45,079 nucleotides of DNA from Opitutaceae bacterium (GTDB taxonomy: Bacteria; Verrucomicrobiota; Verrucomicrobiia; Opitutales; Opitutaceae). Positions within the stretch are counted from its first letter, which is position 1, and every line of letters begins with the position of its first letter. The notes under the pieces are model-generated. The model made no database searches and was not told the DNA's origin. It was given only the letters and a program-made list of their open reading frames with translations. The DNA lies in assembly GCA_030693515.1 (NCBI GenBank), contig JAUYAK010000094.1, positions 1 through 45,079 on the forward strand. Reading direction: 5' to 3'. Shown piece by piece: positions 670 to 42,834 of the stretch. The position numbers and the translations under genes are program-made.

Positions 670-749
670 GTAGGAGCCCGCTTGCGGGCGATTTCGCCGC
701 CTGCTCGTTCGGCGACGCCTTAACGCATCGCGCGCAAGCGCGCTCCTAC
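670..749. repeat. GTAG-type REP doublet (REPIN-like), copy 1
   Basis: An 80-bp element with 23-bp inverted arms (670-692 and 727-749), identical except at two positions. Each arm is also its own hairpin: GCCCGC-TT-GCGGGC on the left and GCGCGC-TT-GCGCGC on the right. The two differences fall on opposite sides of the arm hairpin and so preserve pairing. Outer ends are GTAG and CTAC. The same 80-bp element recurs at 36059-36138. It lies in the convergent gap between ychJ and the gene ending at 772. Two inverted REP hairpins in one unit is the REPIN architecture. Confidence 0.85.
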
Positions 750-771
750 CGCAGGCTTTTTCGACGCATTT

Positions 772-1230
772 TCATGCTTTCTCCGAGGGAACCTTACTCG
801 TCCAGCGCATCCAAGTGATCAGTAGCAATCCCCAATGCACTGGTGTGAGGAGTGCGCGGTCCAGAACATTGAAATGTGCCGGATAGATAAAGCTCCACAC
901 GTAGGAAGCGATCGCGACTAAACTGACAAGCAACCACACCGGCCAAAGAAATTGGTGTTCATCGCTGGCAGAACGAAAATAGGCCATCGCAGATGAGAAA
1001 ATGAATGGGGACGCGAGCAATAGAGCAATCGCGATGGATGTTACTATCGCGACAAATTGCCCACGGTGCGGGATGGCGACCACCACTAGAATGAACAACG
1101 CAGATGCGGCGATGAAACTCACGAATCCCACGGCCACCTTAGTGGCCCGCCTGACCTTGTCACCGGTGCTCACCGCATTCTCGCCAGGAAATGTCTGCAC
1201 GGTCTGTCGGCCCGCAGCTTTGCAGATCAT
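772..1230 (-). CDS. Small four-helix membrane protein, unknown function
   Basis: A 152-residue protein I do not recognise. Four hydrophobic segments are visible, at about residues 33-55, 58-82, 94-115 and 124-142, with a basic N-terminal tail (KVRRATK) before the first. No catalytic or binding motif stands out. The ATG at 1230 gives an N-terminus ending in ENAV; a GTG about 19 codons downstream (VSTGDKVRRA) is an equally plausible start. Base composition is visibly less GC-rich than the neighbours, and the gene stands alone, convergent with ychJ, which hints at acquisition. It could be spurious, but the coherent four-helix pattern argues for a real gene. Confidence 0.6.
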   Translation of the reverse strand: MICKAAGRQTVQTFPGENAVSTGDKVRRATKVAVGFVSFIAASALFILVVVAIPHRGQFVAIVTSIAIALLLASPFIFSSAMAYFRSASDEHQFLWPVWLLVSLVAIASYVWSFIYPAHFNVLDRALLTPVHWGLLLITWMRWTSKVPSEKA

Positions 1231-1270
1231 GGAGGGAATTCGGGGCCAACAGTCGGAGCGGAGACAAAGC

Positions 1271-1296
1271 CGGCGGGCAGGGACGCCCGCCGCTAC
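1271..1296. repeat. Single GTAGCGGCGGGCGTCCC-type palindromic arm
   Basis: On the minus strand this reads GTAGCGGCGGGCGTCCCTGC and continues to close a hairpin with a 7-bp stem (GGCGGGC/GCCCGCC at 1272-1278 and 1285-1291) and a 6-base loop. It sits 10 bp downstream of the stop of the oxidoreductase gene (1307), where it could act as a terminator, although no T-tract follows. Related arms occur in pairs at 13516-13698 and 24747-24819. Confidence 0.6.
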
Positions 1297-1306
1297 GTGG
1301 CACGGC

Positions 1307-2608
1307 TCACGCCGTCTTAATCTGCCGCGTCTTGGGATCGTAGGTCGTGCGTTTGCCGGTGTCGTAGGCGATGACGGCCATCATCACGGCCACGGCGTGC
1401 TGGTAGCCGGCGTCGATTGAGGCGTGCGGGGTCTCGCCGCTGCGCATGCACTCGAGCCAGTTGAGCCAGTGGTCCGGGCGCTTGATCGGGGTGACCTCGA
1501 CCTTGCCGCGGATGGAGCCGTCGCGCTTGCGGCCGCCTTCGGCGCTGTAGGAGGGAGCGTTCCAGTTATCGACGGAGAGGGTGCCTTTCTCGCCGTAGAA
1601 TTTCCGGGTGTTGCCCGCGCTGTTGCCGAAGTTGTTCGAACTCGTGACGACGAAGCCCTCGGGATACATCCACGTGGCGATCACGTTGTCGGGCGTGGTG
1701 AACTTGTTCTCGTCCTTCCAGGTCGTGACGCCGCCGAGGCACACGCAGGATTGCGGCAGGCCGCAGTCCATCACGTAGTGCATGAGGTCGAGGAAGTGCG
1801 CACCCCATTGCGGGACGGGGCCCTGGCAGAACTCGTAGTAGCCATACCAGGCGGAATACTTGCGCGCGTCGAAGGCCTGCTTCGGGGTGTCGCCGAGGAA
1901 CTCGTTCCAATCGACGTCTTCCTTTTTGACGTCCTTACCGAGGTAGGAATACCAGTAGGGGCGGTCGCCGTTGCGGCTCTCGTCGATGCGCATGACCTTG
2001 CCGAGCACGCCGGACTTCATGAGTTCGCGGGCGCCGACGACGCCGGGAAAACTGCGAAGCTGCGTGCCGACCTGGATGATGCTGCCGGCAGCCTGCGCGG
2101 CCTTGGAGGCATCGTAGGCTTTGACGAGCTTGGGGAAATCCGTGGCGAGCGGCTTCTCGACGTAGATGTGTTTGCGGGCCTTGGCGGCGGCCTCGAGGTG
2201 GGTGGTGTGCAGGTGATCGGGCGAGGCGATCATCACGGCGTCGATGCCGTCCATCGCGAGCAAGTCGCGGTAGGAGACGAACTCCTTGGCGGGCCGGCCG
2301 AAATTCTTTTGCACGACGCCGTTCATCTTTTCGCGGGCGACCTTCCACGGGTCGGCGATGGCGACGACCTCGAAGTTGGTGGCGTCCTTGTGCGGGAGGA
2401 TGCCGTTGACGAGATGAGCGTCGCGGCCGCGGCTGCCGCAGCCGATGTGGGCGATGCGGATGCGGTCGTTGGCGCCGATGGAGTTGGCGCGCTCCTTGGC
2501 GGTGAGGAAACGCGGGGTGGCGGCGGCGAGCGCGGTGCCGGCGGCGGCCTTGGCTGAGGTCTTGAGGAAGTCGCGACGGGGGAGGGGGGATTGGGCGGGG
2601 GTGTTCAT
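1307..2608 (-). CDS. Tat-exported Gfo/Idh/MocA family oxidoreductase
   Basis: A 433-residue NAD(P)-dependent oxidoreductase. A twin-arginine signal (RRDFLKTSAKAAAG, residues 11-24) is followed by an alanine-rich stretch, so it is probably exported folded with its cofactor. The Rossmann domain starts near residue 52 (RIAHIGCGSRGRD), and the family signature EKP is in HIYVEKPLATDFPK near residue 150. The C-terminal sugar-binding domain carries the QWGAHFLDLMHYVMD segment typical of Tat-secreted PVC and Bacteroidetes members. Relatives oxidise or reduce sugar hydroxyls, several at C3 of glycosides. It is the last gene of a minus-strand run after the isomerase and DUF1080 genes, separated from the isomerase by a gap holding a 29-bp inverted repeat. 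Family assignment is secure; the substrate is not known. Confidence 0.92.
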   Translation of the reverse strand: MNTPAQSPLPRRDFLKTSAKAAAGTALAAATPRFLTAKERANSIGANDRIRIAHIGCGSRGRDAHLVNGILPHKDATNFEVVAIADPWKVAREKMNGVVQKNFGRPAKEFVSYRDLLAMDGIDAVMIASPDHLHTTHLEAAAKARKHIYVEKPLATDFPKLVKAYDASKAAQAAGSIIQVGTQLRSFPGVVGARELMKSGVLGKVMRIDESRNGDRPYWYSYLGKDVKKEDVDWNEFLGDTPKQAFDARKYSAWYGYYEFCQGPVPQWGAHFLDLMHYVMDCGLPQSCVCLGGVTTWKDENKFTTPDNVIATWMYPEGFVVTSSNNFGNSAGNTRKFYGEKGTLSVDNWNAPSYSAEGGRKRDGSIRGKVEVTPIKRPDHWLNWLECMRSGETPHASIDAGYQHAVAVMMAVIAYDTGKRTTYDPKTRQIKTA

Positions 2609-2639
2609 GGTGATAAAAGAAGGCGTAGTTTCGTTTGGT

Positions 2640-2737
2640 TTGTCATTCTGAGCGCAGCGAAGAATCCACTTGGACCTTCGCAGCGCAGGGAGGATTCGTG
2701 GCTCATGCTGGATTCTTCGCTGCGCTCAGAATGACAA
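2640..2737. repeat. Perfect 29-bp inverted repeat (TCATTCTGAGCGCAGCGAAG type)
   Basis: Arms at 2640-2668 and 2709-2737 are perfect reverse complements over 29 bp around a 40-bp spacer that contains a degraded third half-copy (TTCGCAGCGCAGGGAGGATTC). The motif is a dispersed palindrome I recognise from many unrelated bacterial genomes. It almost fills the 138-bp gap between the isomerase and oxidoreductase genes and may uncouple their transcription. Confidence 0.85.
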
Positions 2738-2746
2738 TGAATGGGA

Positions 2747-3724
2747 TTAAGCGACGAGGATTTGGTCGAGTTTCTGGGAGAGGTGGTTGAGGAATTCCTG
2801 CGGCGGCAGGTCGCGCGGGGCGCCCTGCTCGGTGATCAGCCAGCCGGTGTAGTTGATCTCGTCGAAGGCCTTCATCACGGCCGGCCAGTCGCTGTCGCCG
2901 TGCAAGAGCTCGACGTTGAAGCCGGAATAAGGGCCCGTCTCGTCGCGCATCTTGCGGCTATATTCCTTCACGTGGACCGCCGCGATGCGCGGGCCGAGGA
3001 GGCGCGCCCATTGCTCGGGCCAGCCCAGGTTCACGACGTTGCCGACGTCGAAATGCCATTTCACCGCCGGCGATTTGAACGAATCGCAGTATTCCACCGC
3101 CTCGAGCGGGCTTAGGAGAAACTGGTTCCAGACGTTCTCGAGGGCGATCGCGACGCCGAGTTCCTCGGCGAGCGGCACGCACTTTTTGATCTCCTCGACG
3201 GAGCGCTTCCACGCGTCGGCGTAGGCGATGTCCTTCCTCACCACAGCCGGCACGAGCAGCACGGATTTCGCGCCATAGGCCTTGGCGTCGCGCAGCGCGA
3301 TCTTGAGGTTGTTGACGCTGGTCTCGCGGTCGGCGGGATTCGGCGATGAGAGCGGATGACTCCAGTGCGAAGCCATCAGCACGCTGGCGATCTCGAGGCC
3401 GGCGGCATCGCGGGCGGCCAGCACATCATGGTTGTTTTGGCCGCTGGTGACTTCGACGCCGTGGAAGCCGGCGGTCTTGAGCATCCGAAACTTCTCCGTG
3501 AGCGAGAGCGACTCCGTGCCGCGGCGCGGGAACGTCGAGAACATCAGGCCCTTCTTGTTCGCGCGCGGCGTGGTGCGCGAGGGCTTGAACGCCGCGGGAC
3601 CGGCGGAGGCTTCTGGCCGATTCGAGGGGCGTTTCTTTTTAGAATCGGCCTCGGCGCCGAGCAGCCCGAGCGGGGTAAGCGCGGCGACGGCGGCGGAGGA
3701 TTGGAGGAAAGTGCGGCGGTCCAT
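2747..3724 (-). CDS. Exported sugar phosphate isomerase/epimerase-like TIM-barrel protein
   Basis: A 325-residue protein of the xylose isomerase-like TIM-barrel (AP endonuclease 2) superfamily. The N-terminus MDRRTFLQSSAAVAALTPLG is a twin-arginine-type export signal, followed by a basic linker to about residue 55. The barrel begins at KKGLMFSTFPRRG. Likely metal ligands and strand ends include ALENVWNQF, WHFDVGNVVNLG, AAVHVKEYSRKM and WLITEQGAP, the usual E/D/H/E order of the family. The start lies 2 bp after the stop of the DUF1080 gene, so the two are almost certainly co-transcribed. Relatives act as isomerases, epimerases or lyases on keto-sugars. In this operon a role on an oxidised (3-keto) sugar is plausible but inferred. 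Confidence 0.88.
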   Translation of the reverse strand: MDRRTFLQSSAAVAALTPLGLLGAEADSKKKRPSNRPEASAGPAAFKPSRTTPRANKKGLMFSTFPRRGTESLSLTEKFRMLKTAGFHGVEVTSGQNNHDVLAARDAAGLEIASVLMASHWSHPLSSPNPADRETSVNNLKIALRDAKAYGAKSVLLVPAVVRKDIAYADAWKRSVEEIKKCVPLAEELGVAIALENVWNQFLLSPLEAVEYCDSFKSPAVKWHFDVGNVVNLGWPEQWARLLGPRIAAVHVKEYSRKMRDETGPYSGFNVELLHGDSDWPAVMKAFDEINYTGWLITEQGAPRDLPPQEFLNHLSQKLDQILVA

Positions 3725-3726
3725 GG

Positions 3727-5142
3727 TCAGAGGCGTTTGACCGCGAGATCCTTGAAGGCCACGGGGTCGTTGTGCCCGGCGAGCCCAAGGAAACCGGCGG
3801 TCCGGTCTTTGCCGGGGTGCGCCTTCTTGTCCATGACCGTCGCCATGTCGACCTTGGACACGTCGGCATCAAGGATGATGGTGCCGTTCAGCTCCACCTT
3901 GATGGTCGAGCCCTTGACGGTGACTTCCTGGAAATTCCATTCGCCGAGCGGGCGCTGGTAACCGGGAATGCCGGGCACCATGCCGTAAACCGAGCCGTGC
4001 TGCTGGCGCGGATCGAGTTTTTTGTCGGGCTGGTTGCGCGAGGCGTAGTAGTTTTCGTCGATGATCTGCAACTCGGTCATGCCGTCGTAGGCGGTGTTGC
4101 CCGTGCCGGGGTAACGGATGGCGAGGCCGTTGTTGCCGCCGGGCGGAATCTTGAACGCCACGCGCACCACGAAGTCGCGCAGCTCCTGGTTCCAATACGG
4201 CGTGCCGCCGCGGTTCGCCCGCCAGACGAGCGCGCCGTCCTTGATTTCCATCACGTCGAGCGGTGTCTTGATCGCGGGCTGATTCTTACCGGCAGCCTTC
4301 TCCTCGATGGTCCACCCGTCGAGGTTCTTGCCGTTGAAAATGCTCTCGAAGCCCGCGGCACCCTTGGTCGCCAGGAGCTTGTTGGCTTCGTCAGTGCCGA
4401 TTTCGCGGAGGTGGACGTTGCGCCAGTGCGTGGCGCCGCCGTGCGTCTGCAATTGGATCGGCCCGCGCGCCGGGATCGGGCGGCGTTCGTCAGGCTTCAG
4501 CTTCTTGTTGGCTTTGTCGTAGTAATTTTCGAGGACAGCGTGATCGACGACCAACTGGGCGTTGAGCCATACGCTCACGCGGCTGCCGACCATCACGACG
4601 CGGAGGGAATTCCATTCGCCGACAGGCTTATCGGCCTTCACGAGCGGGTCGCGGCCCGGGGTGCCCTTGGTGTTGTTCCAGAGACCGCCGGAGCCCTTGG
4701 CATAGCCGATGTCCTTGGTGTCGGGGATGCCGGTGTCCCAGATCTGCACCTGCGGCACGCCGCGGAGGTAGACGCCGGAGTCGGCGCCCTTCGCGAGCTT
4801 GTAGTCGAGGCGCAGCTCGAAGTCGCCGTAGTCCTTTTCCGTCGTCGCGTAGCGGCCCTCGCCGTCGTTGACCAGCACGCCGCCCTCGGCGCGCCAGTGG
4901 GGTTTGCCGTCCTTGAGTTCGGTGAGGCTCTTCGTCCACTCGGCGATCTTCTTCGCGCGATCCGCGGCGGTCATTTCGAGCAGCGCGCGGTGATCGAAGG
5001 TATCGCCGCCGCGCCAGCCGGCGAGGTCCTGGCCATTGAAGAGCGCGGTGAACCCCGGGGGCGGCGCCGAGGGCGTTTGGGAGCACGCGGAAAAACCGAG
5101 CAGCAGGGAGGGAAGAGCGAGGCGGAGCAGCAGGGAGCGCAT
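3727..5142 (-). CDS. Two-domain DUF1080 (3-keto-disaccharide hydrolase family) lipoprotein
   Basis: A 471-residue protein with a lipoprotein signal (LLLGFSAC, lipid-modified Cys20). Two DUF1080 domains follow, at about residues 30-250 and 263-471. Each opens with the family phrase, GFTALFNGQDLAGWRG and GFESIFNGKNLDGWTI, and continues in a concanavalin-like beta-sandwich (SGVYLRGVPQVQIWD; NNGLAIRYPG). Pfam now names this family 3-keto-disaccharide hydrolase. It is the first gene of the operon, ends 2 bp before the isomerase start, and has a C/T-rich leader in place of a ribosome binding site. Tandem duplication of the domain in one chain is less usual than the single-domain form seen at 12494-13192. 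The location is probably the outer membrane or periplasm. Confidence 0.9.
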   Translation of the reverse strand: MRSLLLRLALPSLLLGFSACSQTPSAPPPGFTALFNGQDLAGWRGGDTFDHRALLEMTAADRAKKIAEWTKSLTELKDGKPHWRAEGGVLVNDGEGRYATTEKDYGDFELRLDYKLAKGADSGVYLRGVPQVQIWDTGIPDTKDIGYAKGSGGLWNNTKGTPGRDPLVKADKPVGEWNSLRVVMVGSRVSVWLNAQLVVDHAVLENYYDKANKKLKPDERRPIPARGPIQLQTHGGATHWRNVHLREIGTDEANKLLATKGAAGFESIFNGKNLDGWTIEEKAAGKNQPAIKTPLDVMEIKDGALVWRANRGGTPYWNQELRDFVVRVAFKIPPGGNNGLAIRYPGTGNTAYDGMTELQIIDENYYASRNQPDKKLDPRQQHGSVYGMVPGIPGYQRPLGEWNFQEVTVKGSTIKVELNGTIILDADVSKVDMATVMDKKAHPGKDRTAGFLGLAGHNDPVAFKDLAVKRL

Positions 5143-5303
5143 GGCGGGGGGAGGGAGGCGAAAGTGTCTGGTTGGTTACACCCGCGCCGCAAACAGAATT
5201 TCCATGCGCGGCTGGCTTGGTCGCGTGGGGCGGAAAAGTCCGCTCCTGCGGGCGCGAAACATTGCGATTGGTTTTGGCCTATTCCCCGGTAGTAACGCCG
5301 CGC

Positions 5304-12353: not shown

Positions 12354-12410
12354 GTGGGAGCGAGCTGGCTCGCGACGGGTCGGGCAAGACGCGAGCCAGC
12401 TCGCTCCCAC
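12354..12410. repeat. Perfect 21-bp inverted repeat, REP-like (GTGGGAGCGAGCTGGCTCGC)
   Basis: Arms at 12354-12374 and 12390-12410 are perfect reverse complements around 15 bases. Each arm also folds on itself (GCGAG-CTGG-CTCGC). It begins 11 bp after the stop of the cytochrome fusion gene. The arm is very like the REP sequences known from Pseudomonas (GTGGGAGCGRGCTTGCTCGC). Confidence 0.85.
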
Positions 12411-13216: not shown

Positions 13217-13519
13217 GTGAAAAAGGCCGGTAAGGTAGCGTGGTTGGCCTATGCGATCATCGGTTCCATTCTGTATTATTCGGATGGAGCCGCACGTGGA
13301 GAACACATTCTGGGGACGATGATTATCTTCGCTTACTCACTGCCGTCGTCACTGCTTCTGGCGGCAGTGGCGGCCAGTTTCGGTGCTTTCGATTACCTGA
13401 CGCCGGTGACATGGCTGCTGATGGTCACGCTAAACGGATGGTTGCTTTTCCGGCTTTTCTGCCTGTTCGAGAAACGAACGACCCACGTGAGCAAACTGAA
13501 GGAGCCAAAGGGACCGTAG
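13217..13519 (+). CDS. Small membrane protein, unknown function
   Basis: A 100-residue protein with a GTG start at 13217. Three hydrophobic segments (about residues 7-22, 31-55 and 60-86) and a basic C-terminal tail (EKRTTHVSKLKEPKG) suggest an inner-membrane protein. I do not recognise a family. It begins 24 bp after the DUF1080 stop and may be read through from it. Base composition is clearly lower in G+C than the flanking genes. Its TAG stop codon (13517-13519) lies within the GTAG that opens the palindromic element at 13516, so the insertion may have set the present C-terminus. Confidence 0.55.
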   Translation: MKKAGKVAWLAYAIIGSILYYSDGAARGEHILGTMIIFAYSLPSSLLLAAVAASFGAFDYLTPVTWLLMVTLNGWLLFRLFCLFEKRTTHVSKLKEPKGP

Positions 13520-13698
13520 CGGCGGGCGTCCCTGCACGTCGGGGCCCGAGGTAGCGCGAGGCTTCAGCCCGCGCAGGGGGAACACAATTTTTCCGCGCCG
13601 CGCGCGGGATAAAGCCTCGCGCTACTTGCAGTCCCGCTTCGGGAGAAGCGGGCTACCGGAAACGCAAACCACGGCGGGCCGGGACGGCCCACCGCTAC
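13516..13698. repeat. Nested GTAG...CTAC palindromic elements
   Basis: The outer pair runs from GTAGCGGCGGGCGTCCC (from 13516) to the imperfect reverse complement ending CTAC at 13698 (arm 13673-13698). Inside lies a complete element at 13551-13625 whose arms (GTAGCGCGAGGCTT, perfect over 14 bp, about 22 of 24 when extended) have a different sequence. A hairpin follows at 13633-13652 (CCCGCTTC/GAAGCGGG), ending in CTAC at 13656. The array fills the convergent gap between the 13217 gene and the ThuA-like gene, 4 bp from the stop of the latter. Confidence 0.75.
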
Positions 13699-20129: not shown

Positions 20130-20221
20130 CACAGAGTGCACAGAGTTCCGCCACGGAGGACACAGAGCAAAACACCTGGTCTCCTCTGTGAACTCTGTGG
20201 CGGAACTCTGTGCGCTCTGTG
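20130..20221. repeat. 25-bp inverted repeat (CACAGAGTGCACAGAG type)
   Basis: Arms at 20130-20154 and 20197-20221 are reverse complements except at one position; inner sequence (GGAGGACACAGAG / CTCCTCTGTG) extends the pairing. It occupies the 189-bp gap between the sulfatase ending at 20259 and the esterase start at 20069. The CACAGAG-rich palindrome is of a type dispersed in many genomes. It may terminate or attenuate transcription into the esterase. Confidence 0.8.
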
Positions 20222-24746: not shown

Positions 24747-24819
24747 GTAGCGGTGGGCGTCCCGGCCCGCCGGTTCAGGGCGTTCGCAAATTTCAGCGGG
24801 CAGGGACGCCCGCTGCTAC
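24747..24819. repeat. 73-bp GTAG...CTAC palindromic element
   Basis: Arms at 24747-24772 and 24794-24819 pair over 26 bp with four mismatches, around 21 bases. The arm core GTAGCGGTGGGCGTCCCGGC matches those at 1271-1296 and 13516-13698. The element lies one base from the stop codon of the iduronate-sulfatase-like gene (24821-24823) and 22 bp upstream of the next sulfatase start (24724). Confidence 0.8.
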
Positions 24820-27662: not shown

Positions 27663-28181
27663 ATGCGCCAGCACGAACCCGCGTGGTCGCGCGCGCTGCC
27701 GGGCGGGCTGGTCGTGGCGCTCGCGACCCTCGGGCCGATCGGAAAAAAACTGCCCGCGCCGGGCACGTGGGGATCGGTCGCGGGCCTGCTGTATTTCGCC
27801 GCGTGCTTCCAGCACTCAAGCATTCGCGTTGTAGTGCTGGGCAGCGCGGTCGCCTGCGCGCTGGCCGTGGTGATCTGTGGCGCGGCCGAACATCGGCTGG
27901 GCAAAAGCGATCCGGGCGAGGTGATACTCGACGAGTTTGTCGTAATGCCGCTGTGCTTCCTCGGCTGGCGCGAACTGCCGGGGGCCCTGCCGCTGTGGGT
28001 CGTGTGGCTCGCGGGCTTCGCGTTGTTCCGGCTCTTCGACATTGCGAAGCCCCTCGGCATCGCGCGGCTCCAGTCGTTGCCCGGGGGCTGGGGCGTGGTG
28101 GCGGACGATGTGGCGGCCGCGCTCGCGGCGTGCGCGACCTTGCACCTGGGCGCGTGGGCTTTGAGTAGGGCGGGTCTCTGA
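27663..28181 (+). CDS. pgpA: Phosphatidylglycerophosphatase A
   Basis: A 172-residue membrane phosphatase that dephosphorylates phosphatidylglycerophosphate. Family landmarks: TLGPIGKKLPAPGTWGS near the N-terminus, SDPGEVILDEFVVMP (the conserved acidic metal-binding DE motif), and LFRLFDIAKPLGIARLQ before GGWGVVADDVAAA. It starts 3 bp after pgsA, a sensible two-gene operon for phosphatidylglycerol. Its last residues (SRAGL) and its TGA stop are read from the left arm of the palindromic element that begins at 28165, so the insertion rewrote the C-terminus. Confidence 0.95.
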   Translation: MRQHEPAWSRALPGGLVVALATLGPIGKKLPAPGTWGSVAGLLYFAACFQHSSIRVVVLGSAVACALAVVICGAAEHRLGKSDPGEVILDEFVVMPLCFLGWRELPGALPLWVVWLAGFALFRLFDIAKPLGIARLQSLPGGWGVVADDVAAALAACATLHLGAWALSRAGL

Positions 28182-28243
28182 CCCGCCTTTTGGGCGCGGG
28201 CCCACTCGGGGCGCGCCGAGGTCAGGTCACAGACCTGCCCTAC
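28165..28243. repeat. 79-bp GTAG...CTAC palindromic element (GTAGGGCGGGTCTSTGACC)
   Basis: Left arm 28165-28187 and right arm 28220-28243 pair over 23 bp with four mismatches. The left 17 bases are pgpA coding sequence including its stop; the right end is 1 bp from the stop of the NusG-like gene. The same family occurs at 42761-42834, also between convergent stops. It may act as a bidirectional terminator. Confidence 0.82.
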
Positions 28244-33855: not shown

Positions 33856-33958
33856 GGGCGGGTGCGGTGGGCGGTTTCGCGTTCGCCCCATCTGTGTCAC
33901 CCGCGAGATTGGGCTTTCCCGGCGGCGCGGGGGGCGCTACGTCTGGCGCGATTTTTTC

Positions 33959-35947: not shown

Positions 35948-35975
35948 GCGGCGCGGGGCGCGCGTTTCAGGCCAT

Positions 35976-36014: not shown

Positions 36015-36058
36015 GGTTAACAGGTCGGCCGAAAAGAGAAAAGGCCGCGGCTCGGAAT

Positions 36059-36138
36059 GTAGGAGCCCGCTTGCGGGCGATTTCGCCGCCGGTGCATTCG
36101 GCGACGCCGCGGCCCATCGCGCGCAAGCGCGCTCCTAC
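36059..36138. repeat. GTAG-type REP doublet (REPIN-like), copy 2
   Basis: The second 80-bp copy of the element at 670-749, with identical 23-bp arms at 36059-36081 and 36116-36138 (the same two internal differences between arms). The central 34 bases differ from copy 1 mainly in the last third. Same outer GTAG and CTAC ends, same length, same setting in a convergent gap. Confidence 0.87.
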
Positions 36139-36195
36139 CGCAGACCTTTGAGTCGACCGCTAAATTATGCTGCCAATCGCCCAATGGTTTTATCC

Positions 36196-36267
36196 GTAGG
36201 GCCGGACCTTGGTCCGCGCCTCGGCTGGACGCCCACGACGGAGGCATCGACCAAGGTCGAGCCCTAC
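36196..36267. repeat. 72-bp GTAG...CTAC palindromic element (GTAGGGCCGGACCTTGGTC)
   Basis: Arms at 36196-36214 and 36249-36267 pair over 19 bp with two mismatches. The inner part (GGACCTTGGTCCG) also folds on itself. It lies 43 bp from the stop of the WYL regulator gene. The arm sequence is not shared with the other GTAG...CTAC elements in the window, but the ends and size are. Confidence 0.8.
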
Positions 36268-36310
36268 CAAGAGGCAAAAGGATTAGGCGTTTGGTATATG
36301 CGCCCTGGCC

Positions 36311-37294
36311 TCAGCCATAGATCGCGCGCAGCGCGGTGGTGGTGGCGCGCAAGCGGTCGCGGAGTTCCTTGGGGTGCAGCACCTCGGCCTCGGCGCCCCA
36401 GCCGAGCACCCAGCGCTCGATCTCGGGCAGCGCGCCGAGGCGGAGCGTGAGTTCCAGGCGGCCGTCGGGCAGCTCGCGGCGTTCCTGCGATTCGTGCCAC
36501 TCCCGTTCGCGGATGTGGTCGGCCGCGGTGGCGGAGAAACGGATGACGACGCGATAATCGCGGTCGCCGCCGAGCACGCCGAGGGCGGTGGCAAAGAATT
36601 TCTCCGGCGAGAAATCCGCGGGCCGCGTGAAATGCGTGGTGAGCACCGTCACGCCGGCGAGGCGGGGCAGGGCAAAGGTGCGCAGCGCGCCGCGCTCGCT
36701 GTCGAAGCCCACGAGATACCACAGGTTCTCGCGGTGGGAGAGATGGTAGGGTCGCACGCGGCGGCGTTCGCTCGTTTTCGCGCCGGGCTTGCGGTAGTCG
36801 AACTCGACCTCGAACTGCCGCAGCGTCGCGGTGCTCAGGGCGTTGAAGGTCGCGAGGTCGGCGCGGCCGAGGCCCACGTTCTTGAACGAGACCGATTGCA
36901 GCTCCTCCGCCGGTGAAAACGTGATGTGGTCCTTCAGGCCCGCGGTGAGCTTGTCGAAGGAGTTTTCCAACTGCCGGTGGAAGGGCGTGCCGCGGTATTG
37001 CTCGAGGGCCTTGCGGGCGACGAGCAGCGCGAGCAGTTCGCCTTCGGTGACCTGCACCGTGGGAAACGCCGACACGGGGTGCGTGTAGCGGTAGGCATTG
37101 AGCTGCGCGTCGAACTCGATCGGCAGGTCGAGGCGGTCGCGCATGAAGGCGATGTCGCGGATGATGGTCTTGCGCGAGACCTCGAGGCTCGCGGCGAGCT
37201 TGGTGCAGTTGGTGAACGCGCCGCGGCGCAGCTCGTCGTGGATGCGCAGCATGCGCTCGAGGGGCGGGCGGGAGGAGGGGGAAGGGGAGGGCAT
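36311..37294 (-). CDS. WYL-domain transcriptional regulator (YafY-like)
   Basis: A 327-residue regulator starting at ATG 37294 (MPSPSPSSRPPLERMLRIHD); another in-frame ATG lies 14 codons later. An N-terminal helix-turn-helix (about residues 15-75: LRRGAFTNCTKLAASLEVSR and KTIIRDIAFMRDRLDLPI) is followed by a linker and the WYL domain, containing RPYHLSHRENLWYLVGFDSE at about residue 205. A C-terminal WCX-like part ends in WVLGWGAEAEVLHPKELRDR. WYL domains bind nucleic acids or small effectors; relatives control DNA repair, defence or metabolic genes. It is divergent from the 220-residue unknown gene at 37486, with a dyad between them that could be its operator. Confidence 0.92.
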   Translation of the reverse strand: MPSPSPSSRPPLERMLRIHDELRRGAFTNCTKLAASLEVSRKTIIRDIAFMRDRLDLPIEFDAQLNAYRYTHPVSAFPTVQVTEGELLALLVARKALEQYRGTPFHRQLENSFDKLTAGLKDHITFSPAEELQSVSFKNVGLGRADLATFNALSTATLRQFEVEFDYRKPGAKTSERRRVRPYHLSHRENLWYLVGFDSERGALRTFALPRLAGVTVLTTHFTRPADFSPEKFFATALGVLGGDRDYRVVIRFSATAADHIREREWHESQERRELPDGRLELTLRLGALPEIERWVLGWGAEAEVLHPKELRDRLRATTTALRAIYG

Positions 37295-37368
37295 GGAAAT
37301 GGAAAAGGGGGACGACCGGTCGGACGGCTGGCTTGTCATGGCGAGAAGCCCGCGCGGCGGGCGACGAA

Positions 37369-37390
37369 GCCATCCAACAGGCTGGATGGC
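37369..37390. repeat. Hairpin GCCATCCA/TGGATGGC in the regulator upstream region
   Basis: A perfect 8-bp stem with a 6-base loop, inside a longer stretch (37335-37412) starting GTCATGGCGAGAAGCCCGCG that looks like a member of the dispersed GTCATxGCGAG...CGAAGCCATCC repeats. It is about 75-95 bp upstream of the WYL regulator start. Confidence 0.6.
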
Positions 37391-37444
37391 CGCGCCCGCT
37401 GAGCCGGGCTCGCCTTCACAAATCATTTCCCGGTTTTTCGACCC

Positions 37445-37463
37445 TGGGACAAGCTTTGTCCCA
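37445..37463. promoter_or_regulatory. Dyad TGGGACAA-GCT-TTGTCCCA, candidate operator
   Basis: A perfect 8-bp inverted repeat with a 3-base centre, located 23 bp upstream of the ATG at 37486 and between two divergent genes, one of which encodes a WYL regulator. The spacing suits an operator for the regulator on the 37486 gene. It does not match the dispersed palindromes elsewhere in the window. Function is inferred from position. Confidence 0.4.
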
Positions 37464-37485
37464 CCCGGGGGCGTAGAGTGGGCCC

Positions 37486-38148: not shown

Positions 38149-38265
38149 CGAGCCGAATTTATCGATGTCGAAGGCTGGCGAGGCGGCTGAACGGTGAATG
38201 GCAAAGTGGTAGCGGAAGCAGCCGCTGTGACGTGCGGAGAAGTTCGCTGTAGCGCATCGTTAGGC
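38143..38265 (-). repeat. attC-like element at the end of the EEP gene
   Basis: On the minus strand the segment opens GCCTAAC (38265-38259) and closes GTTAAGC (38149-38143), matching the RYYYAAC and GTTRRRY core sites of integron attC sites; the two cores pair with one mismatch. Length is 123 bp. It is translated as the C-terminal tail beginning NDALQRTSPHVTAAASATTL. I recognise NDALQRT-type tails as a recurring ending on unrelated database proteins, which fits a mobile 3' element. Inner arm pairing (L sites) is poor, so the attC reading is tentative. Confidence 0.5.
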
Positions 38266-38984
38266 GAAGTTCTGGGCTGCTGAGAAAACTCGCAAATCAG
38301 CGGCATGTGGTCGCTCTTGCGCGCCCATGTCGCATGCGTGCCGACGGCTACAATAAACGTTGAAGGCTGGAATCCACTGCTAGCGAAAATGTAGTCGATG
38401 TGGTAGCCGCGCTCGGCGTGGTGGTAGAGGTAAAATGTCTCCTCCGGCTCGTCTCCGTGTGGGCAGCCTCGTTGCTCGTGGTATAGGCTGCGAAATCCGT
38501 GGCCGTCGAGAAGGTGGACGAAGTCGCGGAACTTGTAGCGCCGGGATGGTCGGTCAAAGACGAAACTGGCGTTGAAGTCGCCAGCCCAGATAGCTTCTGA
38601 TGCCTCGATAAGCGGCCTGTAATGTTCAAACGCATCGAGCAACGGGTGGACGTAAGAGCGCGAATCGGAATGCGGCACTGTCCAGACGGCAAAGAGCAGA
38701 AACGAAGCAGGACCAGAAACGCGGAGTGGAACCACCCATCGGTGCCGAGGGTCATATTCCGGGTGAGGCTCAACGGCGTAATCGCCATATGAGAGCACCG
38801 CCAATCCCTTCTTCGGATTGCTGCCGAACCAATGGAACGATTTGACCAGGGCGCTCCCGAGCGGCTGTGGAATGCTCAATAATCGTTCGCATTCCGGGAC
38901 GATGAGTAAGTCGGGAAATAACTCCGAAATGGCTTCGTGTTTCCGCGCGAACGCTCCCTTGCAGTTCCAAGTTACGATGCGCAT
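38145..38984 (-). CDS. Endonuclease/exonuclease/phosphatase (EEP)-fold protein
   Basis: A 279-residue protein starting at ATG 38984. EEP landmarks: MRIVTWNCKGAFARKHEAIS (N-terminal Asn), LLIVPECERL (metal-binding Glu), AIWAGDFNASFVF (catalytic GDFN), HIDYIFASSG, and the terminal KSDHMPLICEF (Asp-His). Members are DNA repair nucleases, DNases or phosphoesterases; the substrate cannot be told. The EEP domain ends near residue 238 and the remaining 40 residues come from the attC-like repeat. The gene is visibly lower in G+C than its neighbours, stands alone, and overlaps the convergent 37486 gene by 4 bp, all pointing to acquisition. Confidence 0.87.
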   Translation of the reverse strand: MRIVTWNCKGAFARKHEAISELFPDLLIVPECERLLSIPQPLGSALVKSFHWFGSNPKKGLAVLSYGDYAVEPHPEYDPRHRWVVPLRVSGPASFLLFAVWTVPHSDSRSYVHPLLDAFEHYRPLIEASEAIWAGDFNASFVFDRPSRRYKFRDFVHLLDGHGFRSLYHEQRGCPHGDEPEETFYLYHHAERGYHIDYIFASSGFQPSTFIVAVGTHATWARKSDHMPLICEFSQQPRTSPNDALQRTSPHVTAAASATTLPFTVQPPRQPSTSINSAR

Positions 38985-39146
38985 GACGTGTGGAAGTCGA
39001 CTAATGGTTAGAGTGCAACCTTCCGGATCGGCATGGCGAAGAACTTGGGCCGAGTCAGAGGGAGGTCCATCGAATTTCCCTGCCGGCGCATGAGCCCGGC
39101 ACGTTTCGCCGTTGCACAGCTGGGAAACTCGCATGGTTTGGGAAGC

Positions 39147-39782
39147 GTGAATCTTCATGTGCTGCCGGCCGGGCCGATCCAGACCAATGCCTACCTGCTC
39201 ATTGCGCCCGAGCGCGGCGAAGCGGTGCTAGTCGATGCGCCGGGCGGCGTGTGGGCCGATGTCGCGCCGATCCTCGAAAAGGAGACATGCCGCCTCGTCG
39301 AACTCTGGCTCACGCACGGGCATTGGGACCACATGCAGGGCGCGGCCGAAATCGTCGCCGCCACGGGCGCCAAGACCCGCGCTCATGCCGAGGATCGCAT
39401 GCTCTACGAGACACCCGAGGTCATGGAGCGGCTGATGGGCGAGGACCTCGGCCTGAAGCCCGTGCCGATCGATCGGTGGGTGGGGCAGGGCGAGACGTTC
39501 GACGCGCTCGGGGTGCGGGTCGAGGTGCGGCATGTGCCGGGGCATTGCCCGGGGAGCGTGTTGTTCTACGTCGCGTCGCTTGGCACGGCGTTCGTGGGCG
39601 ATGCGTTGTTTGCCGGCAGCATCGGGCGCACGGATTTGCCGGGGGGAAACTTTGCACAACTAGAGCGTGCGATCCGCGGCCAGATCTTCACGCTCCCGGG
39701 TCCGACCGTGGTCTTGCCCGGTCACGGCCCCCAAACCACCGTCGCCCACGAACGCGCCCACAATCCCTATGTCCGCGACTGA
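39147..39782 (+). CDS. MBL-fold metallo-hydrolase (glyoxalase II-like)
   Basis: A 211-residue metallo-beta-lactamase-fold hydrolase. The zinc motif H-x-H-x-D-H is in LTHGHWDHMQGA; further ligands are in VRHVPGHCPGS, FVGDALFAGSIGRTDLPGG and VVLPGHGPQTTV. The layout matches YcbL/GloB-type enzymes hydrolysing thioesters. I prefer the GTG start at 39147 (VNLHVLPAGPIQTNAYLL), which has GGGA seven bases upstream and the usual length; an ATG at 39090 adds 19 residues with no ribosome binding site. Its end overlaps ribD by 14 bp, so the two are co-transcribed. It is divergent from the EEP gene. Confidence 0.92.
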   Translation: MNLHVLPAGPIQTNAYLLIAPERGEAVLVDAPGGVWADVAPILEKETCRLVELWLTHGHWDHMQGAAEIVAATGAKTRAHAEDRMLYETPEVMERLMGEDLGLKPVPIDRWVGQGETFDALGVRVEVRHVPGHCPGSVLFYVASLGTAFVGDALFAGSIGRTDLPGGNFAQLERAIRGQIFTLPGPTVVLPGHGPQTTVAHERAHNPYVRD

Positions 39783-40926
39783 ACACGAAGCCTTCATGCG
39801 CCAAGCGCTCGACCTCGCGCGGCGGGCGTGGGGCGCCACGCACCCCAACCCCATGGTCGGCGCCGTCATCGTCGAGGAGGGGCGCGTCGTCGCCGAGGGT
39901 TTCCACGAGCAGGACGGTGGCGCCCACGCCGAGCGCCTCGCGTTGCTCAACCGCGGCAAGATGCCGCGCCCCGGCGCCACGCTCTACGTGACGCTTGAGC
40001 CCTGCTCCACGCACGGCCGCACCGGCGCATGCACCGATGCGATCATCGCCTCCGGCATCAAGCGCGTGGTCGTCGGCGCGACCGATCCCAATCCCGGCCA
40101 CTCGGGTCACGGCTTCGAGGTGCTGCGCGCCGCCGGCATCGAGGTGATCACCGGGGTGCTGGCGCGCGAGTGCTCGGACCTCAACCTCATCTTCAACCAC
40201 TGGGTCGGGCACGGCCCGCTCATCGCGGCCAAGGTCGCCGCGACGCTCGACGGCAAGCTCGCGTGCCGCACCGGCGAATCGCGCTGGATCACCAACGAGC
40301 GCTCGCGCGCGGATGTCCACCGCTGGCGCCGGCTCTTTCCGAGCATCGCGGTCGGCGCGATGACGATCCTCAAGGACAATCCGCGCCTGACCGCGCGCCG
40401 CGCCGGCGAGGCGGAGTGGTGCCCCTGGCGCTTCGTCTTCGACGGCCTGCTGCGCACGGTCGTGGATAAAAACCTGCCCGCCGTCTTCACGGATGAATTT
40501 CGCCACCGCACGATCGTCGTCACCACGCCGCATGGCGGCCTCGGCTACGTGCGCAAGCTGCGCGAAATGGGCATCACGGTCTGGACCTTCGACTCGCCGA
40601 CGCAGCGGGTGCCGTTTGCCGATTTCCGGAAAAAATGCGCCGAGGAGCGCATCGCCGGCGTGTTTGTCGAGGGCGGGGCGCACCTCATCAGCGAACTCGT
40701 GCGCGCGCGCCAGCTCGACTACCTCTTCGCCTACCACGCCCCCCTCATCCTCGCCGACGACAAGGCCAAGACGATCTTCAGCGGCCTGCGGCCGGAGCGC
40801 ATTGAGCACGCCCTGCGCCTCGCCGACATGCGCCACGAAGTCTTCGACGACGACCTGCTGATGCACGGCCGGATGGTCTATCCCGAGAAGCTCCTAATCG
40901 ACGAGACGGCTTTTGGCGGACGGTGA
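39769..40926 (+). CDS. ribD: Bifunctional riboflavin biosynthesis deaminase/reductase RibD
   Basis: A 385-residue RibD, catalysing the second and third steps of riboflavin synthesis. The N-terminal deaminase domain (about 1-145) has THPNPMVGAVIVEEGRVVAE, the zinc motif HAERLAL and LEPCSTHGRTGACTDAII. The C-terminal reductase domain starts near 155 with LIAAKVAATLDGKLACRTGE and SRWITNERSRADVHRWR and ends with LADMRHEVFDDDLLMHG. GVFVEGGAHLISELVRARQL is the conserved late segment. The start ATG 39769 lies inside the end of the MBL gene in another frame. Other riboflavin genes are not in the window. Confidence 0.96.
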   Translation: MSATEHEAFMRQALDLARRAWGATHPNPMVGAVIVEEGRVVAEGFHEQDGGAHAERLALLNRGKMPRPGATLYVTLEPCSTHGRTGACTDAIIASGIKRVVVGATDPNPGHSGHGFEVLRAAGIEVITGVLARECSDLNLIFNHWVGHGPLIAAKVAATLDGKLACRTGESRWITNERSRADVHRWRRLFPSIAVGAMTILKDNPRLTARRAGEAEWCPWRFVFDGLLRTVVDKNLPAVFTDEFRHRTIVVTTPHGGLGYVRKLREMGITVWTFDSPTQRVPFADFRKKCAEERIAGVFVEGGAHLISELVRARQLDYLFAYHAPLILADDKAKTIFSGLRPERIEHALRLADMRHEVFDDDLLMHGRMVYPEKLLIDETAFGGR

Positions 40927-40978
40927 GTAGTCTGCCTCACGCGCGCGCCGCTGTCGCGTTTCCAATCTGATTTTCCCC

Positions 40979-42757
40979 ATGCACCGCTGTGTCCTCCCCG
41001 CTCCGATCACCTTCGTTATTTTGCTCGCGCTCACGTCCCTAGGGCGTGCCGCCGCCGATGACTTCCCGCCGCACCCCGACTCGATCGCGCGCCCCGGGGT
41101 GCCCAAGGGTGACCTGATCAAGTTCGAGTTTGCAGCGTCGAAGATTTTCCCCGGCACCACCCGCGAGGTCACGCTCTACGTGCCCAGGCAATACGACCCC
41201 GCGAAGCCCGCGTGCGTCTACGTGAACCAAGATGGCGTGCAGTGGGGCGCGCCTGTCGTGTTCGACAACCTGATTGCGCGCGGCGACATCCCGGTGCTCA
41301 TCGGCGTCTTTGTGCGGCCCGGCGTGGTCAAAGCCGCCCACGGCCAGACCGCGCTCGATCGCTTCAACCGCAGCTACGAATACGACGGCCTCGGCGACGC
41401 CTACGCGCGTTTCCTGCTCGAAGAATTGCTCCCCGCCATCGAGACGAAGACCACGCCCGATGGCCGCGCGATCCGGCTTTCGAAGGCCGGCGCCGACCGC
41501 GCGATCGGCGGATCGAGCAGCGGCGCGATCGCGGCTTTTACGGCGGCGTGGGAGCGGCCGGATGCGTTCACGCGCGTTTTCAGCAACGTCGGCACCTTCG
41601 TCGGCCTGCGCGGCGGCGACATCTACCCGACGCTCATCCGCAAGTATGAGCCGAAGCCCCTGCGGGTGTTTCTCGTCGATGGCTCCAACGACAACAACAT
41701 CTACGCCGGCGACTGGTGGATGGCCAACCAGACGATGCAACGCGCGCTCACCTTCTCGGGCTACGACGTGCGCCACGTTTGGGGTGAAGGCGGCCACAAC
41801 GCCAAGCACGGCACCGCGGTGTTTCCCGACGCGATGCGCTGGCTCTGGAGCGGCTGGCCCGCGCCCGTGAAATCCACCGCGCCCACGAAGAACACGTTTC
41901 TCGCCGCGCTGCTTATCCCCGGCGAGGACTGGCAGCTCGTGAGCGAAGGCCACCGGCTCACCGAAGGCCCGGCCGCCAACGCCCGCGGCGAAGTCTTCTT
42001 CACCGACATCCCAAATTCCAAGGCCTTCAAGATCGGCCTGGACGGCAAGGTCACGCTCGTGCGGGAAAACACCAATCGCACCAACGGCCAGGCCTTCGGG
42101 CCCGACGGGCGGCTCTACGTCGCGTCTACCGGCGCGCAGCAGGTGCTCGCTTTTGACGCAGAGGGGAAATCCACCGTCATCGCCGAGGGCATCGCGGGCA
42201 ACGACCTCGTCGTCGCGAAAAACGGCCACATCTACGTGACCCACCCGCCCGGCGGCGCGAGTCCGTTCAACGAGCCGAGCAAGGTCTGGCTCATCAAGCC
42301 CGACGGCACGAAGCAGGTCGTGGACACCGGCCTGCGCTTCGCCAACGGCGTCGCGCTCTCGCCCGACCAGACGCTCCTCTACGTGGCCGACTATCGCTCG
42401 AAATGGCTCTATTCCTACAACGTGCAGCCCGACGGCACGCTGGCTAACAAACAGCGCTTCTTCTGGCTGCACGAGCCCGACGCGATGGACCAGAGCTCGG
42501 CCGACGGCATCAAGGTCGATCGCGACGGCCGCGTCTATGTCGCCACCGCGCTCGGCATTCAGGTCTGCGATCAACCCGGCCGCGTGAACGCGATCATCCC
42601 CACACCAAACGGGAAAATCACCAACCTCTGCTTCGGCGGCGAAAAATTCGACATCCTCTACGCGACCTGCGCCGAGAAGGTGTATCGCCGGAAGCTCAAC
42701 ACCACCGGCGCCCACGCCTGGGCCGAGCCGCTCAAGCCGGCCACGCCGCGGCTGTGA
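40979..42757 (+). CDS. Secreted esterase fused to SMP-30/gluconolactonase domain
   Basis: A 592-residue two-domain secreted protein; signal peptide MHRCVLPAPITFVILLALTS. The N-terminal esterase (PF00756-like, about residues 40-295) has the nucleophile elbow AIGGSSSGAIAAF, LRVFLVDGSNDNNIY and the catalytic His in WGEGGHNAKHG. The C-terminal six-bladed propeller (about 310-585) is SMP-30/gluconolactonase-like: EGPAANARGEVFFTDIPNSK, FGPDGRLYVASTG, FANGVALSPDQTLLYVADY and SADGIKVDRDGRVYVATALG. The pairing suggests sequential ester or lactone hydrolysis of a sugar derivative, by inference. The leader GATTTTCCCC-ATG lacks a Shine-Dalgarno. The palindrome at 42761 starts 3 bp after the stop. Confidence 0.92.
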   Translation: MHRCVLPAPITFVILLALTSLGRAAADDFPPHPDSIARPGVPKGDLIKFEFAASKIFPGTTREVTLYVPRQYDPAKPACVYVNQDGVQWGAPVVFDNLIARGDIPVLIGVFVRPGVVKAAHGQTALDRFNRSYEYDGLGDAYARFLLEELLPAIETKTTPDGRAIRLSKAGADRAIGGSSSGAIAAFTAAWERPDAFTRVFSNVGTFVGLRGGDIYPTLIRKYEPKPLRVFLVDGSNDNNIYAGDWWMANQTMQRALTFSGYDVRHVWGEGGHNAKHGTAVFPDAMRWLWSGWPAPVKSTAPTKNTFLAALLIPGEDWQLVSEGHRLTEGPAANARGEVFFTDIPNSKAFKIGLDGKVTLVRENTNRTNGQAFGPDGRLYVASTGAQQVLAFDAEGKSTVIAEGIAGNDLVVAKNGHIYVTHPPGGASPFNEPSKVWLIKPDGTKQVVDTGLRFANGVALSPDQTLLYVADYRSKWLYSYNVQPDGTLANKQRFFWLHEPDAMDQSSADGIKVDRDGRVYVATALGIQVCDQPGRVNAIIPTPNGKITNLCFGGEKFDILYATCAEKVYRRKLNTTGAHAWAEPLKPATPRL

Positions 42758-42760
42758 GAA

Positions 42761-42834
42761 GTAGGGCGGTCTGTGACCCGCCCTTTCGCGTGTTGAGTGT
42801 CCGTATCTAGGGCGGGTCAAAGACCACGCCCTAC
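42761..42834. repeat. 74-bp GTAG...CTAC palindromic element (GTAGGGCGGTCTGTGACC)
   Basis: Left arm 42761-42783 pairs with right arm 42810-42834 (a 2-base indel and one mismatch). Same family as 28165-28243. It starts 3 bp after the esterase-SMP30 stop and its final CTAC directly abuts the galE stop codon (42835-42837), so it spans the whole convergent junction and could terminate both transcripts. Confidence 0.83.

What the first reader, a model, noticed from the sequence alone, without database searches (positions are those of the whole stretch)
670..42834. Seven palindromic elements of 72-80 bp with different arms but common GTAG...CTAC ends
Seen: 670-749 (80 bp), 13551-13625 (75), 24747-24819 (73), 28165-28243 (79), 36059-36138 (80), 36196-36267 (72) and 42761-42834 (74). 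Arm sequences fall into at least five types (GTAGGAGCCCGC, GTAGCGCGAGG, GTAGCGGTGGGCG, GTAGGGCGGGTCT, GTAGGGCCGGACC), yet every one starts GTAG, ends CTAC and has nearly the same length. Known: REP sequences mobilised by RAYT transposases often carry a GTAG signature and occur as inverted doublets (REPINs). Inference: this genome hosts several parallel REPIN populations, perhaps served by one or more RAYTs recognising only the tetranucleotide and stem, which would be unusual diversity.
Basis: partly seen in the sequence, partly recalled or inferred. Interest (0 to 1): 0.72.

Follow-up and report, generated by a model that had tools for sequence, protein, structure and literature searches.

The report
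Parallel REPINs; transposases inside essential genes
The seven palindromes are ordinary members of a known kind of tiny bacterial mobile DNA (REPINs) served by separate dedicated transposases, but following them showed that one of these transposases, and a family of its relatives in other Verrucomicrobiota, lies in frame inside housekeeping genes such as the alanyl-tRNA synthetase gene.

Summary
Observation confirmed: all seven elements are there, far above chance (6 pass a strict detector, 0.01 expected; the seventh has an arm lacking a base). They are REPINs, head-to-head pairs of GTAG-type REPs of five families. Eleven arm families, three of them tagged GTGG, coexist in a 24% sample of this Opitutaceae-like genome. 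The idea of few RAYTs reading only tag and stem is not supported: F2, F4, F8, F9, F10 and F11 each lie beside their own RAYT; F1, F3, F6 and F7 have none. Coexisting families with matching RAYTs are in print (PMC3733652, PMC3686654). Unusual: one RAYT lies in frame inside the genome's only alaS gene. Of 80 related loci kept from other genomes, nearly all named Verrucomicrobiota, 75 lie in frame in alaS, recG, metH, thrS, carB or (by eye) priA; 68 show the host gene on both sides. Catalytic residues are kept in 78 of 81, dN/dS is low, and 13 of 13 genomes checked show no second copy of the host gene. Six paper searches aimed at this showed no report of it in their listings.

The parts
670..749 (.). 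REPIN, family F3 (GTAGGAGCSCGC), with two different stems (CCCGC / GCGCG)
13551..13625 (.). REPIN, family F6 (GTAGCGCGAGGCTTCAG)
24747..24819 (.). REPIN, family F2 (GTAGCGGCGGGCGTCC); the family flanks the RAYT of contig C120
28165..28243 (.). REPIN, family F1 (GTAGGGCGGGTC), the commonest family in the sample; no RAYT flanked by it was found
36059..36138 (.). REPIN, family F3
36196..36267 (.). REPIN, family F5 (GTAGGGCYSGACCTTGG); its CTAC end gives the TAG stop of the minus-strand ORF 36264-37373 (whether that ORF or the overlapping 36311-37426 is the gene was not tested)
42761..42834 (.). REPIN, family F1, one arm lacking a base; lies between the stop codons of two convergent ORFs (40979-42757 and 42835-43992, both with Pfam matches)
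29..54 (-). lone REP, family F10 (GTGG tag)
1272..1296 (-). lone REP, family F2
13516..13540 (+). lone, diverged REP, family F2, beside the F6 REPIN

Best explanation
The seven palindromes are REPINs: two GTAG-tagged REP hairpins of one family, head to head around a spacer. Shown: the genome carries at least eleven such arm families; six of them (F2, F4, F8, F9, F10, F11) each sit beside their own RAYT gene. Inferred from published work on RAYTs: each RAYT, an HUH tyrosine nuclease, recognises its own hairpin and tag in single-stranded DNA and moves the pairs in trans; families without a RAYT (F1, F3, F6, F7) are left from a lost or switched RAYT. One RAYT of this genome, with a further small REP family (F14, GGGGAGCGC...), is carried as an in-frame insert in the only alaS gene, so it is predicted to be made as a domain of alanyl-tRNA synthetase.
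For: Palindromes far above chance. Arm families are multi-copy in 1.61 Mb (24.3% of the genome): tag-bearing arms F1 40, F2 24, F3 12, F4 12, F5 9, F6 5, F7 10, F11 6 (GTAG) and F8 22, F9 17, F10 16 (GTGG) (of the 22 F8 arms scores 11 as F3 with a GTGG tag). Of 67 neighbouring tagged pairs within 100 bp, 57 are same-family and these 57 are head-to-head; 10 join different families. RAYT flanks: C38-F4, C25-F8, C6-F9, C70-F11 on both sides; C120-F2 as pairs on one side and one arm near the contig end on the other; C89:59151-F10 on one side; C56 lies among GTGACACAGACATTCC repeats. alaS: PF01411 is split 1-378/379-537 with no other match in the genome; the insert scores 82.7 bits for NF047646 (cut-off 80); inverted repeats of 51 nt, 84% complementary, at its ends; 12 F14 arms genome-wide, two of them the alaS pair, against 0 for the backwards pattern.
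Against: F1, the commonest family, and F3, F6 and F7 have no flanking RAYT in this 130-contig assembly, so the match is seen for 6 of 11 families. An F3 pair does lie about 0.8 kb from the C25 RAYT, outside its F8 arms. At C70 the F11 and F5-like arms stand tags-inside, not head-to-head. Before both-strand readings of the same palindrome were removed, one search also counted same-family tags-inside and tandem pairs (F1 10 and 9, F11 2 tags-inside, F8 1 tandem), so 57 of 57 depends on letting the tag set the orientation. Two of the six matching RAYTs (C6, C89:59151) carry an internal TGA. The F9 pattern matches its backwards control more often than itself (47 against 29) and F3 has 11 against 42, so F9 rests on its tag and on the C6 flanks. 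The sample was taken from contigs already known to hold hits, so it is not random. No movement was observed. Family names F1-F14 are mine.
Confidence: 0.9

Rival explanations
1. A single RAYT, or very few, serve all arm types by reading only the tetranucleotide and the stem shape.
For: All GTAG families share the tag, the length class and the paired layout; four families have no RAYT of their own in the assembly.
Against: Six RAYTs each lie beside one arm family (F2, F4, F8, F9, F10, F11), and three of these families carry GTGG instead of GTAG.
Confidence: 0.08
2. The palindromes are intrinsic terminators or mRNA 3' stem-loops that arose independently; their likeness reflects selection for hairpins at gene ends.
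For: At least two lie directly at stop codons of ORFs (36196-36267 and 42761-42834), a position also described for REPs in print (PMC3733652, section 15).
Against: The same arms recur at many places in the sample, often in pairs, with GTAG or GTGG tags not needed by a terminator, and the same arms flank transposase genes. A secondary role as 3' hairpins is not excluded.
Confidence: 0.03
3. The RAYT in alaS is an assembly or annotation artefact, or a dead passenger awaiting deletion.
For: Most of the 80 records are titled MAG; in the record that I take for an isolate, Ereboglobus sp. PH5-10, the two halves of alaS lie at two contig ends; in L278 the metH frame stops just after the RAYT.
Against: Host gene on both sides of the RAYT in 68 of 80 loci, in five host genes, six more cut only by the end of the stretch held; RAYT dN/dS 0.13-0.30 in nine of ten pairs of the five-genome alaS set, the tenth saturated; His/His/Tyr kept in 78 of 81.
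Confidence: 0.05

Closest known systems
REPINs and GTAG REPs with RAYTs in Pseudomonas and Stenotrophomonas (SMAG) (PMC3116915, passages; PMC3686654, abstract and section 8; PMC3733652, abstract, passages and sections 5, 15, 16)
   Same: GTAG tag, hairpin arms, inverted pairs (common spacings 71 and 110 bp in PMC3116915), several classes per genome, class-specific RAYTs, orphan classes explained by RAYT loss
   Different: Here at least eleven families and nine RAYT or RAYT-like genes plus one broken copy in one genome, against at most four RAYTs in PMC3686654; three families tagged GTGG; a different phylum
Opitutus terrae GTAG families, including the GTGG-tagged GTAG-20 (PMC3733652, sections 5 and 15, passages)
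   Same: Verrucomicrobia, several coexisting families, GTGG variant, many REPs inside genes
   Different: The sections read report REPs and REP dimers inside genes, more than half of the inserts being dimers or groups that encode 20-30 residues, and no RAYT gene inside a gene. The figure with the consensus sequences is not held, so family identity was not tested
TIRYTs/TIRtrons (PMC3733652 section 16) and TnpA subclass 2.1 (PMC6006769, passages)
   Same: RAYT-like genes flanked by inverted repeats other than GTAG REPs, some with a GGGG-rich motif; the alaS insert has GGGGAGCGC ends
   Different: In what I read they are not described as lying inside other genes; [quoted passage not shown]
Rickettsia palindromic elements in protein-coding genes (as cited in PMC3733652 section 15; otherwise recalled)
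   Same: Palindromic repeats read in frame inside host proteins
   Different: Short elements without a transposase (recalled); here the whole transposase gene is part of the insert
Inteins with homing endonucleases (recalled, no call)
   Same: In-frame nuclease inserts in conserved housekeeping genes, patchy distribution, same sites in distant relatives
   Different: No splicing domain was matched: the insert matches only RAYT/IS200 transposase models in Pfam and NCBIfam; flanked by REPs

Membership tests
GTAG REP superfamily | 20-40 bp palindrome with an unpaired GTAG motif at one end, many copies | tested here: met
   118 GTAG-tagged arms of eight families in a 24% sample; a tag-only hairpin scan was weaker, GTAG ranking fourth of 256 tetramers
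REPIN | Two REPs of one class as an inverted pair around a spacer, the commonest arrangement | tested here: met
   57 of 67 neighbouring tagged pairs are same-family, these 57 head-to-head; F11 arms at C70 are an exception
REPIN | Association of the class with a RAYT gene flanked by the same REPs | tested here: met
met for F2, F4, F8, F9, F10, F11 (6 of 11 families); not met for F1, F3, F6, F7; F5 only loosely.
REPIN | Mobility (excision or insertion) | not testable with these tools
   one genome assembly, no reads
RAYT (REP-associated tyrosine transposase) | HUH motif and catalytic Tyr, NF047646 model match | tested here: met
   13 matches at E<=10 in the own genome: nine RAYT or RAYT-like genes (three over the cut-off: C6, C44 in alaS, C38), two pieces of one broken copy, one IS200-type gene, one at noise level. 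HUH and Tyr were checked only in the alaS clade
GTAG-20 or another named O. terrae family | Consensus sequence of the published figure | not testable with these tools
   figures are not held
Intein | Self-splicing (Hint) domain at the insert ends | tested here: not met
   no such domain matched in the fused protein or the insert; ends are REP-encoded

The most novel reading that the evidence does not exclude
A clade of RAYTs has become a protein-embedded mobile gene: stop-free, flanked by its own in-frame REPs, it lives inside housekeeping proteins (AlaRS, RecG, MetH, ThrRS, CarB, PriA) across the Verrucomicrobiota and in one Kiritimatiellota genome, stays at each site for long times, occasionally moves to another such site, remains an active nuclease, and moves small REPIN populations in trans; the essential host gene protects it from loss and expresses it.
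Probability: 0.5. Interest if true: 0.86.

Novelty: new variant of a known kind. Interest (0 to 1): 0.68.

Why it matters
The palindromes themselves enlarge a known picture: one genome can keep many separate REPIN populations, several with their own transposase and even their own tag. The transposase in alaS bears on an open question about RAYTs, namely how a transposase that does not copy itself like an insertion sequence (recalled) survives for so long. Sitting in frame in a gene the cell cannot lose is a simple possible answer, and one that can be tested. It would also mean that alanyl-tRNA synthetase, RecG and methionine synthase in many Verrucomicrobiota carry a DNA nuclease domain, and that such genes are easily dismissed as fusions or annotation errors.

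Tried and rejected
Counting the bare tag pair genome-wide: rejected as evidence, the backwards control was higher (91 against 144). Single-hairpin scan by tag: GTAG 18 per 1000 against a median of 9, but TAGG, AAAA and AGTA score higher; too noisy. De novo 14-mers in 0.81 Mb: of 13 groups only F1, F2 and one non-REP repeat stand apart from GC-rich coding words. F12 (GTAGGGCGGGGTCGCC), tried as a family, gave 0 in the sample and was dropped, although one element of that kind was seen.

Taking RAYTs from the Y1_Tnp model alone missed C6, C38, C56 and the second C89 copy; the NF047646 search corrected this. Looking for RAYTs of the orphan families in 90 fetched loci that hold RAYTs or their surroundings (L103-L131 and L187-L247, own genome included): F1 and F6 were found in none, F3 only in the C25 locus of the own genome, F7 in one (the isochorismate synthase RAYT held as L203 and L222).

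Long open frames are not proof of embedding: of 19 RAYT matches with frames of 500 aa or more that I picked by eye from the rows listed (a capped list), four (L228, L230, L231, L232) look like chance upstream frames on reading, and one (L223) stops just after the RAYT. Structure prediction of an AlaRS-RAYT fusion was not possible. Host-site labels on the RAYT tree need 19 changes (least possible 8; 200 shuffles: mean 42.7, none as low), so neither one insertion per site nor free jumping fits; the tree is a quick one with 33 of 84 inner branches under 80% support.
Full report
1. The elements. All seven palindromes are present as described. A strict detector finds six; 200 dinucleotide shuffles of the window average 0.01 (maximum 1) and never reach six, and no other non-palindromic tetranucleotide tag does as well. 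The seventh, 42761-42834, has lost a base in one arm. The window also holds an eighth pair with the tag GTGG (12354-12410) and three lone REPs. The bare tag pair without palindromic arms is not enriched in the genome (91 against 144 for the backwards pattern), so the tag counts only together with the arms; among outermost ends of inverted repeats in 0.81 Mb, GTAG leads with 14 of 99, the next four tetramers having 4 each.

2. Families. The window is contig C66 of a 6.65 Mb, 130-contig genome. With the window it is 1.61 Mb, 24.3% of the genome. Arms were counted with up to 3 mismatches to patterns that I wrote from the elements seen, and the four bases in front of each arm were read off as the tag. 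Tag-bearing arms: F1 GTAGGGCGGGTC 40, F2 GTAGCGGCGGGCGTCC 24, F3 GTAGGAGCSCGC 12, F4 GTAGGGCGSSGACTCC 12, F5 GTAGGGCYSGACCTTGG 9, F6 GTAGCGCGAGGCTTCAG 5, F7 GTAGGGGCGCAGTCTTG 10, F11 GTAGGGCCTSAGCTTG 6; with GTGG: F8 GTGGGAGCGAGC 22, F9 GTGGGGCCGSTTCTCC 17, F10 GTGGGCGGGCACGTCC 16 (one search scores half of the F8 arms as F3 with a GTGG tag). Backwards controls were 0-2 per pattern except F3 (11 against 42 hits) and F9 (47 against 29), so the F9 pattern alone proves nothing. A twelfth pattern, F12, gave no hit. Because the arms are palindromes, each can match on both strands; after keeping the reading with the better tag, 67 neighbouring tagged pairs lie within 100 bp: 57 same-family, these 57 head-to-head, and 10 of different families. 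Before that step same-family tags-inside and tandem pairs were also counted. The window's seven listed elements belong to F1 (2), F2 (1), F3 (2), F5 (1) and F6 (1).

3. Transposases. The Y1_Tnp model finds seven matches and the RAYT model NF047646 thirteen at E up to 10: nine RAYT or RAYT-like genes (three over the model's cut-off, two with an internal TGA, one inside alaS), two pieces of one broken copy, one IS200-type gene and one match at noise level. Flanks: C38 lies between F4 pairs, C25 between F8 arms (with an F3 pair about 0.8 kb away), C6 between F9 pairs; C70 has F11 and F5-like arms on both sides, tags inside; C120 has F2 pairs on one side and one F2 arm near the contig end on the other; C89:59151 has F10 on one side. 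C56 lies among repeats of the type GTGACACAGACATTCC, a further family. C42 has only one F9 arm well downstream, and the broken C89 copy none of the families tested. So six arm families match six RAYTs, and the tag differs with the RAYT. F1, F3, F6 and F7 have none here; PMC3686654 (section 8 read) describes classes without a RAYT in other bacteria and explains them by RAYT loss or by mutation of the flanking REPs. This part of the finding is a rich example of a known kind: PMC3733652 (sections 5, 15 and 16 read) reports several coexisting families in Opitutus terrae, a GTGG variant there, many REPs inside its genes, and repeat-specific RAYT units in species with several families.

4. Where the genome belongs. 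Pfam matches of nine ORFs tested (Gfo/Idh dehydrogenase, sulfatases, 3-keto-disaccharide hydrolase and others) fit many environmental bacteria. I infer Opitutaceae, Verrucomicrobiota; no record of the genome itself was named.

5. A RAYT inside alaS. The RAYT at C44:25660-26085 has no stop and lies in one 1127-aa frame with alanyl-tRNA synthetase. The AlaRS model PF01411 matches in two pieces, positions 1-378 and 379-537, on either side of the insert, and nowhere else in the genome at E up to 0.001. The fused protein scores 795 bits for alaS (cut-off 457), the insert alone 82.7 bits for the RAYT model (cut-off 80). The insert ends in inverted repeats of 51 nt, 84% complementary, of a type GGGGAGCGC... 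(F14) that occurs 12 times in the genome, two of these in alaS, against 0 for the backwards pattern, with apparent pairs on C70, C104 and C118. Among 273 genomes of the order, three (own included) had a match over RAYT plus AlaRS; among 200 of the family, five matched the RAYT at 66-100% identity, four in frames of 1127-1164 aa and G114 in one of 730 aa that begins at a contig end, and the next best listed RAYT was at 45%. Of 44 AlaRS frames compared (one genome twice, five without the anchors), 29 have 28-34 residues between the two anchor motifs, seven have 42-88, and three have the RAYT.

6. Age and constraint. In the five family members the 147-codon RAYT part has dN/dS 0.13-0.30 in nine of ten pairs (dS of the tenth is saturated), against 0.23-0.29 for the N part (six pairs) and 0.24-0.57 for the C part of AlaRS. 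RAYT and AlaRS C-part identity go together in some pairs (80% and 80% for G349-G114, 77% and 76% for G204-G312) but not exactly (78% and 66% for G000-G204). dS is high, so the ratios are rough.

7. A clade of such RAYTs. A scan of the collection of 84,980 species genomes with the five-sequence RAYT alignment kept 80 of 95 relatives, in records titled as Verrucomicrobiota of several orders, one Kiritimatiellaeota and one unnamed bacterium. 75 of 80 lie in frame in longer ORFs (463-1619 aa) and five in short ORFs of 211-234 aa. The pieces beside the RAYT match alaS in 35 of 80, recG 25, metH 9, thrS 4, carB 1; L301 I read as priA by eye. 68 of 80 match the host on both sides; six are cut by the end of the stretch held (L251, L271, L275, L301, L312, L320), and in L278 the metH frame stops just after the RAYT. 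The four loci used as host references besides the own alaS match themselves; they were named by NCBIfam, as were one more metH and one alaS locus. alaS has two insertion sites (31 of 36 with the own gene labelled as the linker site, two of these by their C piece only where the N piece is missing, and 5 at a second place), metH two. L303 carries two RAYTs in one alaS. The first HUH His is kept in 79 of 81 (own included), the second in 81, Tyr in 80; 78 keep all three. The search chose sequences with two conserved peptides, so 75 of 80 is a figure for this clade, not for RAYTs in general.

8. Sole copies. In seven more genomes with the insert in alaS (chosen from those at hand), PF01411 matches only the two pieces; in Ereboglobus sp. 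PH5-10 these sit at two contig ends. In five of the 25 recG cases looked at, the only matches reaching both ends of the RecG model are the two pieces of the split gene (other matches are partial and, I take it, related helicases such as Mfd), while two genomes with the insert in thrS have RecG without such a split at that place. With the own alaS this makes 13 genomes.

9. A second set. More distant RAYTs of the family and order also lie in frame in other genes: isochorismate synthase in five genomes (over the subfamily cut-off) and HsdR (L233, over the cut-off); weaker, below the curated cut-offs, a creatininase-like gene (L226; L227 by eye), a PglX-like methyltransferase (L225; L223 by eye stops after the RAYT) and adenosine deaminase (L220). 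Their flanks encode REP-like peptides on reading.

10. How it may work. Shown: in-frame, stop-free RAYTs with REP ends in housekeeping genes without a second copy where checked, kept catalytic residues, constraint, persistence at sites with some changes of site (19 changes on the tree against 42.7 in shuffles; quick tree). Inferred: insertion by the known single-strand nuclease chemistry, survival only of in-frame inserts at tolerant linkers, protection and expression by the host gene, service of REPINs in trans. Not known: whether the fusion is cut, whether the domain is active, whether the cell gains.

11. Literature. Nine paper searches ran (one search failed); six were aimed at a RAYT inside a housekeeping gene. 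Of these, searches found no paper, 47 listed 11 of 11, 93 one of one, 84 ten of 295 and 92 ten of 36; no listed title or abstract start reports it. The library holds only open-licence papers. PMC6006769 (passages seen) states that a few unexpectedly long TnpA proteins, taken as gene fusions or annotation errors, were discarded. PMC3116915 was seen in passages.

One search was added to count host matches on both sides.

Noticed in passing
L052:4238-7600 (G000:C44:24238-27600): REP-associated tyrosine transposase in frame inside the only alanyl-tRNA synthetase gene of the genome.
   Followed up: yes
L248-L327: 75 of 80 relatives of that RAYT lie in frame in alaS, recG, metH, thrS, carB or (by eye) priA; 68 with the host on both sides; L303 has two RAYTs in one alaS.
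   Followed up: yes
L219, L221, L222, L224, L229 (isochorismate synthase); L226, L227; L225; L233; L220: A more distant set of RAYTs in frame in other host genes, five of them in isochorismate synthase.
   Followed up: partly
window 2640-2737; L047:1827-1924; L057:7338-7426: Inverted repeats of 89-98 bp with TTGTCATTCTGAGCGCAGCGAAG-like arms at three places in the sample, another repeat family without the GTAG tag.
   Followed up: no
window 20130-20221: 92 bp inverted repeat with CACAGAG-rich arms; an arm of similar kind at L061:2355-2420.
   Followed up: no
L243:1114-1946 (G000:C56): RAYT surrounded by GTGACACAGACATTCCTGTCTGTG repeats, some of them apparently inside its own reading frame.
   Followed up: partly
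L310:3474-7499: carB carries, besides the RAYT, a second in-frame stretch that looks REP-encoded (GSARIPHA...NVRATR), read by eye.
   Followed up: no
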